DNA of 64,000 bases from Spongiibacter tropicus DSM 19543 (lineage in GTDB: Bacteria > Pseudomonadota > Gammaproteobacteria > Pseudomonadales > Spongiibacteraceae). Within the stretch, counting starts at the first letter, position 1. Each line of letters opens with the position of its first letter. The translations under genes and the position numbers were made by a program. This document shows positions 34,585-40,235 of this stretch, piece after piece. The notes under the pieces are model-generated. The model was given only the letters and a program-made list of their open reading frames with translations, made no database searches and had not been told where the DNA came from. The stretch lies in NCBI RefSeq assembly GCF_000420325.1, contig NZ_ATUS01000001.1, positions 2,236,463-2,300,462 on the forward strand, written 5' to 3'.

Positions 34585-35256
34585 ATGATTCGTTTGACTA
34601 AACCAGCGCGCCTGGCGGCGCTGATGAGTGCGGCAGTATTTATGGCCGCGTGTAGTATCGATCCGTACACCGGCGAGGAAAAAGCCAGCAACACCGCGAA
34701 AGGGGCGGGTTGGGGTGCTCTCGGTGGTGCCATTCTGGGTGCAGCGGTTTCCGATAAGGATCACCGCGAGCAAGGCGCCTGGATAGGTGCAGCGGCGGGC
34801 GCGGCCGCGGGTGGTGGTTACGGTTACTACATGGACCGCCAAGAAGCCAAATTGCGTGCCCGTCTTGAAGGCACAGGCGTTGGTGTCCAGCGTGTAGGCG
34901 ACAGCATCAAGCTGATTATGCCCGGCAACATCACGTTTGATACCGGCAGCTCTGCGATTCAGGGCGGCTTTACCAGCGTGCTGGACAGCGTCGTGATGGT
35001 GGCCAAGGAGTTCGACAAGACGCTGATGCAAATCAACGGCTACACCGACTCTACCGGCAGCTTCCAGACCAACCAGTCGCTCTCTGAGCAGCGTGCGGGC
35101 AGTGTGGCGAGATACTTCATGAATCAGGGTATTCCTGCCAGTCGTATCCGCTCAACCGGCTACGGTCCACGTGATCCGATTGCCGATAACAGCACGGCGT
35201 CTGGCCGTTCGCAGAACCGCCGCGTAGAAATTGAAATGCTGCCCATGCAGCAGTAA
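34585..35256 (+). CDS. OmpA family lipoprotein, YiaD-like
   Basis: 223 residues. Lipoprotein signal with lipobox VFMAAC (Cys near residue 23), a Gly/Ala-rich glycine-zipper region (about 38-80, with GWGALGGAILGAAVS), then an OmpA-like domain (about 110-215) with MQINGYTDSTGSFQTNQSLS and SQNRRVEIEM. Probably anchors the outer membrane to peptidoglycan. The same architecture as E. coli YiaD. Followed by a weak stem-loop and then the LEA-type lipoprotein gene. Confidence 0.83.
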   Translation: MIRLTKPARLAALMSAAVFMAACSIDPYTGEEKASNTAKGAGWGALGGAILGAAVSDKDHREQGAWIGAAAGAAAGGGYGYYMDRQEAKLRARLEGTGVGVQRVGDSIKLIMPGNITFDTGSSAIQGGFTSVLDSVVMVAKEFDKTLMQINGYTDSTGSFQTNQSLSEQRAGSVARYFMNQGIPASRIRSTGYGPRDPIADNSTASGRSQNRRVEIEMLPMQQ

Positions 35257-35266
35257 TGCTCCGGCA

Positions 35267-35291
35267 GGGGCGCCTCCCGGCGCCCCGTTTC
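35267..35291 (+). terminator. Possible terminator after YiaD-like gene
   Basis: GGGGCGCC (35267-35274) pairs with GGCGCCCC (35279-35286), loop TCCC. The T-run is short and mixed (GTTTCC), so termination may be weak and some transcripts may continue into the next gene. Confidence 0.5.
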
Positions 35292-35324
35292 CCCACCTGA
35301 TATTCCATTCCACAAGGTCTTGTT

Positions 35325-35786
35325 GTGAAAAAACTGTTTCTTTTCCTGGCGACATGGCTGCTGGCTGCCTGTGCGACTTTTAATCCCGTCAGCAAGCCTG
35401 AAGTGGCAATTACCAGCATTAATCTCGGTCCGTCGAATGGTTTGCAGCAGCAGCTGTTGATTGGCTTGCAGCTGGACAACCCCAATGCCTTTGATTTGAA
35501 ACTGGGGCGCCTGCGCTACGACATGCAAATCGCGGGGAGTAAGCTGGCATCCGGGCGCTTCAATGAGGCCATTTCGGTGCCGGCTAATGGGCAAACCGTT
35601 ATCGAAGTTCCGGTGGGCATCAATCTGCTCAGTGGCCTGGGTTTTCTGAAAACCCTGATGACCAGCGCCAGCGATGAACTGGAGTACACGCTTAATCTGA
35701 GTGCGGACGTGGGCAATTTCGGCTTTGGTGATGTCAGTCTGGTGAAAAGCGGGGTGGTCAATATCGGTACCGCCCCCGCCAAATAG
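35325..35786 (+). CDS. LEA type 2 family lipoprotein
   Basis: 153 residues. GTG start with AAGG upstream, lipobox LLAAC (Cys near 16), then one LEA14/WHy-like beta-sandwich domain (about 25-145: SINLGPSNGLQQQLLIGLQL, NPNAFDL). The family includes desiccation-related plant proteins and bacterial periplasmic lipoproteins of unknown function. One base separates its stop from the convergent ParA gene. Confidence 0.7.
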   Translation: MKKLFLFLATWLLAACATFNPVSKPEVAITSINLGPSNGLQQQLLIGLQLDNPNAFDLKLGRLRYDMQIAGSKLASGRFNEAISVPANGQTVIEVPVGINLLSGLGFLKTLMTSASDELEYTLNLSADVGNFGFGDVSLVKSGVVNIGTAPAK

Positions 35787-38797: not shown

Positions 38798-39023
38798 GAT
38801 GTAACCTCTGTCTGAACGTACTTGTTGTACCTGCACCGCGCAGGTCTGTTGATAGTGGCCGACAGTATTGCCAAGCGCGTGAGCGCCAACAATGGCCTAA
38901 GCTATCAATGCCCAGTGACGAAAAAGATCAGAGGACACGCTGGCCGCGCTTGTTTTACGGGTGATGCCAGAGTAAAAATAGACATTCCGCTGCCTCTCCA
39001 GCCACAGGATCTGGCCCACAACT

Positions 39024-39224
39024 ATGGATAACTGTCTGTCTCCCGCCGGACGTTTGCTGCTCCTTCAACGCCGCCATAGGGCATTGGATGATGAGATCAC
39101 TCAGTTGTCGGAAAACCCCTGGCAAAACCAGTTGCTGTTGCGCCGCCTGAAAAAAGAGAAGCTGATGTTGCGCGATACCATTGAGCGGATGAAGAGCGGC
39201 TTGATTCCCGATATGGATGCCTGA
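39024..39224 (+). CDS. YdcH/DUF465 family small protein
   Basis: 66 residues, mostly helical coiled coil. RHRALDDEITQLSE and LKKEKLMLRDTIERM are the two DUF465 repeats. Function unknown in E. coli and others. No strong ribosome site precedes the ATG. A GacA-type palindrome starts two bases after its stop. Confidence 0.7.
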   Translation: MDNCLSPAGRLLLLQRRHRALDDEITQLSENPWQNQLLLRRLKKEKLMLRDTIERMKSGLIPDMDA

Positions 39225-39228
39225 TGTT

Positions 39229-39246
39229 TGTGAGATATCTCTCACA
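39229..39246 (+). promoter_or_regulatory. GacA/UvrY-type upstream activating palindrome
   Basis: TGTGAG-ATATCT-CTCACA: 18-bp dyad; the arms extend to 9 bp (39227-39248). Published GacA/UvrY boxes that drive csrB, csrC, rsmY and rsmZ have the form TGTRAG-N6-CTTACA (established knowledge). The centre lies about 65 bases before the predicted start of the small RNA below. The alternative is an operator for an unlinked regulator; the spacer is wrong for CRP. Confidence 0.65.
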
Positions 39247-39290
39247 AATCGTGGTGCTTATGGCGACTGTTTTGATTTTTCTAGTAGTGG

Positions 39291-39388
39291 TCTAATTAAA
39301 AACGTCAGGACGACGTCGGCATTCAACGGATTGAGTGCGACAGCGGATGTCAAATATTGTAAAGCCGGTGCCACGCACCGGCTTTTCT
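39291..39388 (+). ncRNA. Candidate CsrB/RsmY-like small RNA with promoter -10
   Basis: Predicted transcript near 39302-39388 after -10 TCTAAT (39291-39296); -35 is poor, as expected for a GacA-activated promoter. Three stem-loops each carry GGA in the loop: ACGTC (39302-39306) with GACGT (39312-39316), loop AGGAC; an 8-bp stem with one G-T pair (39319-39326 with 39331-39338), loop CGGA preceded by A, giving ANGGA; GACA (39339-39342) with TGTC (39348-39351), loop GCGGA. Then a perfect 11-bp terminator stem (39361-39371 with 39375-39385, loop CAC) and TTTT. CsrA/RsmA binds GGA in loops, so this would titrate CsrA under GacS/GacA. At about 87 nt it is shorter than RsmY/Z (about 120 nt). No csrA lies in this window. 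Confidence 0.62.
39361..39388 (+). terminator. Rho-independent terminator of the candidate small RNA
   Basis: A perfect 11-bp stem AAAGCCGGTGC / GCACCGGCTTT with loop CAC, then T-rich sequence. It lies 136 bases past the ydcH stop and ends the predicted RNA; it may also stop ydcH readthrough. Confidence 0.8.
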
Positions 39389-39470
39389 GTTTCTGGCCCT
39401 CGTGCACCAGCGTTGCTCCGCGCTAAGCGAGCCCTTACACTCGCGATTCCTCGCAAGATTGTTTATCACC

Positions 39471-40235
39471 ATGTCTGACCGCAATTTCGACGGTATTGCC
39501 CAGCGCTTCCACCGCAATATTTATCACAGCCCAAAAGGTGAGCTGCGTTTGGCCAGTTGTCGCCGGGAACTGCAAGAGCAATTGCCGGAACGCCTGCTGG
39601 CGCCTGATATCCGGGTTTGGGATGCCGGCGGAGGGATCGGCCAGATGTCGGCCGACTGTCTGGAGCGAGGGCAGTCGGTAGTACTCAATGACGTGTCGGG
39701 CGATATGTTGGCACTGGCCGCGACGGAACTCGCGGTATACTCCGACAGTGGCCAGTTGTCGCTGGTTCAGTCGCCCATTCAGGCGTTAGCCATCGATGCG
39801 CCGTTTGACCTGGTGATTTGTCACGCCGTGCTGGAATGGGTGGGCGATATGGAGGCGGTGCTGGACGCTCTCACCGATGGAATGGCGCCTGACGGTTATA
39901 TGTCGTTGATGTTCTACAATCTCAATGCCTTGATTATAGGGAATATGATCAAGGGTAATCTCTACAAGCTGCGAGACGAAGACTTTGCCGGGCATCCCGG
40001 TGGGCTGACCCCTCCAAAGCCGAGAGATCCGGTAGAGGTGATTAATGCATTGCAGGCACGGGGGTTGGAAATTGTCGCGCGTCGGGGTGTGCGTCTAAGT
40101 TACGACATGATGTCGAGAAGCCTGAGGGCGGAGCGCAGTGTTGACGATATGCTCGCTATTGATTGGCAATACGGCGCCCGCGAGCCATTCTGGGCTCTCG
40201 GGCGCTACGTGCACCTGTTATGCCGACGCGCCTGA
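39471..40235 (+). CDS. cmoM: tRNA 5-carboxymethoxyuridine methyltransferase CmoM
   Basis: 254 residues from the ATG at 39471. SAM motif I VWDAGGGIGQMS, the start MSDRNFDGIAQRFHRNIY, and SLMFYNLNAL are the marks of CmoM (formerly SmtA), which methylates the cmo5U34 wobble base in tRNA. The end GRYVHLLCRR corresponds to the family's conserved C terminus. No overlap with the candidate small RNA. Convergent with the Mpo1-like gene (3-base gap). Confidence 0.88.
   Translation: MSDRNFDGIAQRFHRNIYHSPKGELRLASCRRELQEQLPERLLAPDIRVWDAGGGIGQMSADCLERGQSVVLNDVSGDMLALAATELAVYSDSGQLSLVQSPIQALAIDAPFDLVICHAVLEWVGDMEAVLDALTDGMAPDGYMSLMFYNLNALIIGNMIKGNLYKLRDEDFAGHPGGLTPPKPRDPVEVINALQARGLEIVARRGVRLSYDMMSRSLRAERSVDDMLAIDWQYGAREPFWALGRYVHLLCRRA

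What the first reader, a model, noticed from the sequence alone, without database searches (positions are those of the whole stretch)
39229..39388. GacA-controlled, CsrB/RsmY-like small RNA between ydcH and cmoM
A GacA/UvrY-type palindrome (TGTGAG-N6-CTCACA, 39229-39246) stands about 65 bases upstream of a -10 box (TCTAAT). An 87-base segment follows that folds into three stem-loops, each with GGA in the loop: loops AGGAC, CGGA (with A before it) and GCGGA. It ends at a perfect 11-bp terminator. GacA box plus repeated GGA hairpins plus terminator is the hallmark of CsrB/RsmY/RsmZ RNAs that sequester CsrA (established knowledge). No protein gene explains this segment. It is shorter than known pseudomonad Rsm RNAs and in a gene context I do not associate with any named one, so it may be a new member.
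Basis: partly seen in the sequence, partly recalled or inferred. Interest (0 to 1): 0.87.

Follow-up and report, generated by a model that had tools for sequence, protein, structure and literature searches.

The report
Short GacA-linked CsrA-sponge small RNA
A short gene between two protein genes most likely makes a small RNA that soaks up the global regulator CsrA when the GacS/GacA signalling system is on; it looks like an unusually small, so far unnamed member of the CsrB/Rsm class in a group of marine bacteria.

Summary
At 39229-39246 lies the only exact TGTRAG-N6-CTYACA palindrome in the 3.95-Mb genome. About 57 nt after it begins a segment that folds into three hairpins, each with GGA in its loop, followed by an 11-bp terminator. 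None of 3000 shuffles gave three GGA loops. The element occurs, just after a ydcH-like gene, in all 18 genus genomes held; the GGA of each hairpin is kept, the palindrome-to-RNA distance is 56-57 nt, and stems show compensatory changes, while the flanking spacers are poorly conserved. Named carriers are Zhongshania and Spongiibacter. The genome encodes GacA- and GacS-like proteins and three CsrA. No Rfam Csr/Rsm family matches above cut-off. Relatives carry longer RNAs (4 or 6 GGAs) or a tandem pair in the corresponding neighbourhood. Best reading: a GacA-activated RNA of about 86 nt that sequesters CsrA, a new and very short member of the CsrB/Rsm functional class. Transcription, GacA binding and CsrA binding are inferred, not shown.

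The parts
39024..39224 (+). ydcH-like (DUF465) gene, constant upstream neighbour
   Evidence: PF04325 E 3e-13; adjacent in 18 of 18 genus genomes
39229..39246 (.). GacA/UvrY-type palindrome (probable activator site)
   Evidence: only exact TGTRAGN6CTYACA in the genome; mean pairwise identity 0.91 in 18 genomes, against 0.53 for the spacer and 0.54 for 60 nt after the terminator
39291..39296 (+). -10-like element TCTAAT (ATAAT or close variants in relatives); no -35 consensus
   Evidence: sequence; alignment; the generic sigma-70 scan found no promoter
39303..39388 (+). small RNA, about 86 nt; the 5' end is inferred from the -10 position
   Evidence: aligned in 18 of 18 genus genomes; model R1 match 39304-39388, 85.7 bits (the window's RNA is one of the sequences the model was built from)
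39302..39316 (+). hairpin 1, loop AGGAC
39319..39338 (+). hairpin 2, loop CGGA; carries two of the three hairpin pairs that have changes on both sides
39339..39351 (+). hairpin 3, GACAGCGGATGTC, near the CsrA SELEX consensus RUACARGGAUGU
   Evidence: consensus from PMC7652899 (passages)
39361..39388 (+). intrinsic terminator (11-bp stem 39361-39385 and T-rich tail)
39471..40235 (+). cmoM-like methyltransferase gene, usual downstream neighbour
   Evidence: best NCBIfam model CmoM NF008264, E 3e-61, 207 bits, below its cut-off of 366; cmoM homologue downstream in 16 of 18

Best explanation
An independent small-RNA gene. Phosphorylated GacA binds the palindrome and activates a promoter about 45 nt downstream (inferred). 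A transcript of about 86 nt runs to the intrinsic terminator (inferred). Its three GGA-loop hairpins bind CsrA and take it away from mRNA leaders, so that the GacS/GacA signal relieves CsrA control (inferred). Shown by computation: the anatomy, its conservation, compensatory changes in the stems, and genes for GacS-like, GacA-like and CsrA proteins. With three sites per RNA it would be a minimal CsrA sponge. Relatives seem to have changed the number of sites in this neighbourhood by adding hairpins or by tandem duplication.
For: The only exact GacA-type palindrome in the genome stands in front of it. Its form agrees with the E. coli csrB site TGTGAGAGATCTCTTACA bound by UvrY (PMC4682653, passages) and with a putative GacA site CGTGAGACATCTCTTACA of Pseudoalteromonas Pf1 (PMC9927453, passages). 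Three GGA loops plus terminator, z -3.4; 0 of 3000 shuffles reach three GGA loops. The GGA of each hairpin is invariant in 18 of 18 genus genomes. Box-to-RNA spacing is 56-57 nt in all 18, while ydcH-to-box spacing runs from 4 to 40 nt, so the box goes with the RNA. Mean pairwise identity: box 0.91, hairpins 0.83, linker and terminator 0.74, spacer 0.53, 60 nt after the terminator 0.54. On the three hairpins 97.4% of cells pair and three pairs have changes on both sides; 0 of 500 shuffles reach the observed value on any of the five measures. GacA-like protein 51% identical to E. coli UvrY, followed by a frame that I read as uvrC; BarA/GacS-like protein; three CsrA. Similar RNAs in two genomes of another family of the order have a box of the same form 74-75 nt upstream, one of them as a tandem pair.
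Against: No transcript, GacA-binding or CsrA-binding data. No Rfam Csr/Rsm family matches over its cut-off. In the own genome the weak RsmZ matches (3 of 3) and the listed rsmX matches (10 of 11; one is not listed) lie elsewhere, and CsrB has none. Unconstrained single-sequence folds, cut 40 nt past hairpin 3, show three GGA loops in 12 of 18 genomes, two in 3, one in 1 and none in 2. Folds depend on the ends chosen: of six stretches, three (L007, L052, L019) give the three hairpins, two of them with hairpin 3 closing into its GGA, and three (L106, L053, and window 39304-39355 without terminator) do not. Six of 18 boxes depart from the arms TGTGAG/CTCACA: four at 1 of 12 positions, G004 at 2, G007 at 3. 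The GacA- and GacS-like proteins have UvrY/GacA and BarA as best families but score below NCBIfam's cut-offs (270 against 280; 676 against 890). No sigma-70 consensus promoter was found.
Confidence: 0.9

Rival explanations
1. The RNA is a CsrA sponge but the palindrome is read by another regulator, or by GacA together with others.
For: GacA binding is inferred from sequence only. The palindrome also holds TGTGA and TCACA half-sites like those of CRP (recalled). G007 keeps only 9 of 12 arm positions.
Against: The half-sites are 8 apart, not 6 as for CRP (recalled). The form agrees with the site to which UvrY binds at csrB, and csrB and csrC were the strongest UvrY targets (PMC4682653, abstract and passages). 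A GacA-like protein is present, and the exact palindrome occurs once in the genome, as expected of a regulator with few direct targets.
Confidence: 0.08
2. A cis-acting leader or attenuator of cmoM.
For: It lies upstream of cmoM on the same strand and ends in a terminator; 16 of 18 genomes have cmoM downstream.
Against: In G014 and G015 (and Spongiibacter pelagi, L106) no cmoM homologue was found in the held flank while the RNA is intact; the same holds for G048 and G085 of another family. In G002 another open frame lies between. Three conserved GGA loops are not explained.
Confidence: 0.03
3. A base-pairing (Hfq-type) small RNA that also binds CsrA, so that part of the conserved sequence is a seed for mRNA pairing.
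For: Some base-pairing RNAs contain at least two GGAs and bind CsrA (PMC7652899, passages). TGCGACA is invariant in 18 of 18.
Against: Conservation is concentrated in the GGA hairpins and their stems, with compensatory changes; the linker before the terminator varies.
Confidence: 0.06
4. The palindrome is only the 3' hairpin or terminator of ydcH, and the rest is unrelated.
For: In G009, G010 and G013 the palindrome lies inside a longer inverted repeat with 11-14 Watson-Crick pairs in the next 16 positions, and over all 18 the flanks pair better than flanks mixed between genomes (8-22 of 5000 permutations as high).
Against: The other 15 genomes have 0-7 such pairs in 16 while the core is kept. 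The distance to ydcH varies from 4 to 40 nt and the distance to the RNA is 56-57.
Confidence: 0.03

Closest known systems
RsmX / RsmX-2 of Pseudomonas (Rfam RF02144)
   Same: Short GacA-dependent RNA with exposed GGAs and an upstream activating sequence; duplication is known. RsmX-2 is 110 nt with 6 GGAs, 3 predicted exposed (PMC7911923, abstract and passages). One copy of the tandem relative (G048, L188) matches RF02144 weakly: 29.4 bits, E 0.074, gathering 56.
   Different: About 86 nt and 3 GGAs; no match over the RF02144 cut-off in any of 21 family genomes, and 10 of the 11 weak matches in the own genome, those listed, are elsewhere.
RsmY / RsmZ of Pseudomonas (RF00195, RF00166)
   Same: GGA-hairpin architecture and inferred mode of action.
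   Different: RF00166 model has 133 positions; RsmY and RsmZ of P. brassicacearum have 7 and 10 GGAs (PMC7911923, passages). No Rfam match: RF00195 was tested only through the all-Rfam scans of the window, RF00166 also in 21 whole genomes.
CsrB / CsrC (RF00018, RF00084)
   Same: UvrY-type 18-nt inverted repeat upstream (PMC4682653, passages); GGA hairpins.
   Different: The CsrB model has 356 positions and no match in the own genome at E <= 1. The repeat is centred near -183 at csrB, but about -65 from the inferred start here.
Pf1, Pf2, Pf3 Csr RNAs of Pseudoalteromonas fuliginea
   Same: Csr RNAs of a marine gammaproteobacterium; Pf1 has a putative GacA site (PMC9927453, passages; Pf2 and Pf3 seen only in the listing of PMC11882849).
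   Different: Pf1 has about 21 GGAs, and its 260 database hits were all from Pseudoalteromonas.

Membership tests
CsrB/Rsm functional class (GacA-controlled CsrA-sequestering RNAs) | Several GGA motifs in hairpin loops | tested here: met
   Three GGA loops, GGA of each hairpin kept in 18 of 18, 0 of 3000 shuffles. Against: single-sequence folds show all three in 12 of 18
CsrB/Rsm functional class (GacA-controlled CsrA-sequestering RNAs) | GacA/UvrY-type 18-nt palindrome upstream of the promoter | tested here: met
   As sequence: exact and unique in the genome; 12 of 18 genomes keep 12 of 12 arm positions, the others 9-11. Binding itself not testable
CsrB/Rsm functional class (GacA-controlled CsrA-sequestering RNAs) | Non-coding, with intrinsic terminator | tested here: met
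   Terminator; no frame open in all 18
CsrB/Rsm functional class (GacA-controlled CsrA-sequestering RNAs) | GacS, GacA and CsrA in the same genome | tested here: met
   CsrA over cut-off three times. GacA-like and GacS-like have the right best family but score below its curated cut-off
CsrB/Rsm functional class (GacA-controlled CsrA-sequestering RNAs) | Binds CsrA and relieves its targets; RNA level depends on GacA | not testable with these tools
   Needs gel shift or CLIP, northern blot, gacA deletion
Rfam sequence families CsrB RF00018, PrrB_RsmZ RF00166, rsmX RF02144 | Score at or above the gathering threshold | tested here: not met
   0 of 21 family genomes over cut-off for each; none in the window
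Rfam sequence families RsmY RF00195, CsrC RF00084 | Score at or above the gathering threshold | tested here: not met
   Only through the all-Rfam scans of the window at gathering score and of 39000-39600 at E up to 10; not searched genome-wide

The most novel reading that the evidence does not exclude
A self-contained lineage of Csr sponge RNAs in the ydcH-cmoM neighbourhood of Spongiibacteraceae and a related family. The core form is about 86 nt with three sites, shorter than every GacA-linked CsrA sponge cited here. Sponge capacity in this one neighbourhood has been tuned by evolution: three sites in Zhongshania/Spongiibacter, a tandem pair in another family, four or six sites in Litorivivens and UBA5047. 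In the window's genome it may be the only RNA directly under GacA.
Probability: 0.5. Interest if true: 0.58.

Novelty: new member of a known kind. Interest (0 to 1): 0.46.

Why it matters
It gives a likely output RNA of the Gac/Csr pathway in a marine group for which my searches of the held papers showed none (of which only the first 15 rows were seen). It also offers a natural three-site RNA for asking how few CsrA sites an effective sponge needs; earlier work found that a single GGA is not enough (PMC2375449, abstract and passages). Differences in length in one neighbourhood make sponge capacity comparable between relatives.

Tried and rejected
Rfam models of the class: no match above cut-off; permissive scans gave only weak, mostly irrelevant matches. 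A second Csr RNA in the own genome: R1 gave one match in G000 at E <= 0.01, and the second RNA of G019 has no match there at E <= 0.01. Order-wide R1 matches (75 of 390 genomes at E <= 0.01): 17 are genus members; G017, which carries the RNA, is not in that list, probably because it was not drawn. I looked at 13 weaker loci, L089-L101: two (L089, L090) have the box 74-75 nt upstream; in the other 11 no box stands there, and by eye they look like terminators, a tRNA or gene ends. L094 has a different palindrome and was left open. Of the second matches in genus genomes, six were read: one Csr-like (G019), four tRNA-like by eye, one coding-like by eye. The other weak matches were not inspected. 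Other exact palindromes in relatives, such as TGTAAGGATGAACTTACA, looked coding by eye and were not pursued. The cmoM-leader and ydcH-terminator ideas were put low. Of these 80, 3 gave strong R1 matches and 2 more (L129, L132) have a box followed by a longer RNA; 5 further box-like matches (L108, L109, L114, L116 inside ydcH, and L179 far away) were set aside, and 70 had none. Kulkarni and colleagues' 2006 prediction paper (recalled) is not held, so an earlier computational prediction of this locus cannot be excluded. Paper searches: Zhongshania with CsrA, none; Spongiibacter with CsrA, one Legionella paper, listing only; Spongiibacteraceae with GacA, one metagenome paper, listing only; broader searches (none), whose listings were capped.

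Full report
Observation. The window holds, in order, a ydcH-like gene (39024-39224), the palindrome TGTGAGATATCTCTCACA (39229-39246), TCTAAT (39291-39296), three hairpins (39302-39316, 39319-39338, 39339-39351) and a terminator with an 11-bp stem (39361-39385), then a cmoM-like gene from 39471. The predicted structure has GGA in all three loops, -36.8 kcal/mol against a shuffle mean of -24.8, z -3.4. In 3000 dinucleotide shuffles none had three GGA loops. Of 10652 tiled windows of the 64 kb, 4 did: three overlapping this site and one elsewhere. The palindrome is the only exact TGTRAGN6CTYACA in 3.95 Mb.

Conservation. A DNA search gave matches in 20 of 21 family genomes at E <= 1, many of them weak. 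With the palindrome search and direct reading the whole element was located in all 18 genus genomes held (G000, G004-G020), each time just after ydcH. Alignment A1 (18 rows) keeps the GGA of each hairpin in every row. Box-to-RNA distance is 56-57 nt in 18 of 18, whereas ydcH-to-box is 4-40 nt. Mean pairwise identity is 0.91 for the box, 0.83 for the hairpins and 0.74 for linker and terminator, against 0.53 for the spacer and 0.54 for the 60 nt after the terminator. On the three hairpins 97.4% of cells pair, three pairs have changes on both sides, and none of 500 shuffles reached the observed value on any measure; sliding the partners drops pairing to 22-35%. The terminator also shows changes on both sides. 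Adverse: unconstrained single-sequence folds give three GGA loops in 12 of 18 genomes only, and the result depends on the ends chosen (three of six stretches give the three hairpins). Six of 18 boxes depart from TGTGAG/CTCACA at 1-3 of 12 positions.

Names and range. A scan of named genomes with the ydcH protein alignment, then model R1, finds the same RNA in Zhongshania aliphaticivorans (102.6 bits), another Zhongshania (102.7) and Spongiibacter pelagi (87.6): 3 of the 80 loci kept. In 390 genomes of the order, R1 scores 85.7-102.7 bits in 17 genus members; the next best genomes are G085 (47.1) and G048 (41.8), both of family f29. Both have a GacA-type box 74-75 nt upstream. G048 carries two copies in tandem, each with its own box, with 3 and 4 GGAs.

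Longer forms in the same neighbourhood. In the sister genus, G002 (the same as the UBA5047 contig L129, judging by the printed stretch) has ydcH, a frame that I read as a flavin reductase, the box TGTGAGACATGTCTCACA, then six GGAs before the terminator, five of them in GAANGGANTC units; cmoM lies beyond a further frame. Litorivivens lipolytica (L132, and G001) has a weaker box and four GGAs. I infer one orthologous locus whose number of CsrA sites has changed; for the long and short RNAs this rests on position and box, not on alignable sequence.

Partners. Three CsrA genes lie in G000, each above the Pfam cut-off and at least one NCBIfam CsrA cut-off. The product of L036 matches solved CsrA-family chains, among them 2jpp. 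GacA-like: 51% identical to E. coli UvrY, best NCBIfam model UvrY/SirA/GacA at 270 bits against a cut-off of 280, followed by a frame that I read as uvrC. GacS-like: best model BarA, 676 bits against a cut-off of 890.

Mechanism. GacS-GacA signalling activates the RNA through the palindrome, and the three hairpins titrate CsrA. Both steps are inferred from the class. Literature: UvrY binds an 18-nt inverted repeat, TGTGAGAGATCTCTTACA at csrB (PMC4682653, abstract and passages). The CsrA SELEX consensus is RUACARGGAUGU, with GGA mostly in hairpin loops (PMC7652899, passages), close to hairpin 3 (ACAGCGGAUGU, one base longer). Several GGAs are needed for sequestration (PMC2375449, abstract and passages). 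RsmX-2 is 110 nt with six GGAs (PMC7911923, abstract and passages).

Novelty. No Rfam family matches above cut-off; the nearest hint is rsmX on the tandem relative, E 0.074. The predictions of PMC5568370 (first part of its Results read) list no member of this group. I call it a new member of a known functional class, unusually small, and not a member of any named sequence family. 'Small' is relative to the RNAs cited here. An earlier prediction in a paper not held cannot be excluded.

Noticed in passing
L182/L199 (G019:C1:1830295-1830409) and L200 (G016:C1:244824-244882): A second Csr-like RNA (GTCAGGGATGAC...GACANGGANGTC; R1 40.3 bits in G019) in two genus members. By eye only half of a GacA-type palindrome lies upstream. 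No match in the window's genome.
   Followed up: partly
L009, L020, L010 (G009, G010, G013), around the GacA-type box: The box lies inside a longer inverted repeat whose flanks differ between genomes yet stay complementary (11-14 of the next 16 positions); over 18 genomes more than when flanks are mixed (8-22 of 5000 permutations as high). Possibly also a ydcH mRNA 3' hairpin.
   Followed up: partly
L188:2982-3364: Tandem pair of the RNA, each copy with its own palindrome and terminator, in a genome of another family of the order.
   Followed up: partly
L094 (G064:C320:1721-1806): Weak R1 match (35.6 bits) with GGAs and, upstream, a different palindrome (GTAGGATATATCCTAC); perhaps a relative with a changed activator site. 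No ydcH match in that genome, which is 83% complete.
   Followed up: no
L039 (G005:C1:2815073-2815090): UvrY-type palindrome TGTAAGAGATCTCTCACA at the centre of a much longer inverted repeat; no GGA RNA seen by eye, perhaps a bidirectional terminator.
   Followed up: no
downstream of the terminator in Zhongshania-type genomes (e.g. L007 about 1668-1705): Similar stretch TGCATTGAGCTTTT...GCTTGCTTAAGCT between the terminator and cmoM in several genomes, by eye; perhaps the cmoM promoter.
   Followed up: no
window 35251-35344, minus strand: The only other tiled 94-nt stretch of the window whose predicted fold has three GGA loops; not examined further.
   Followed up: no
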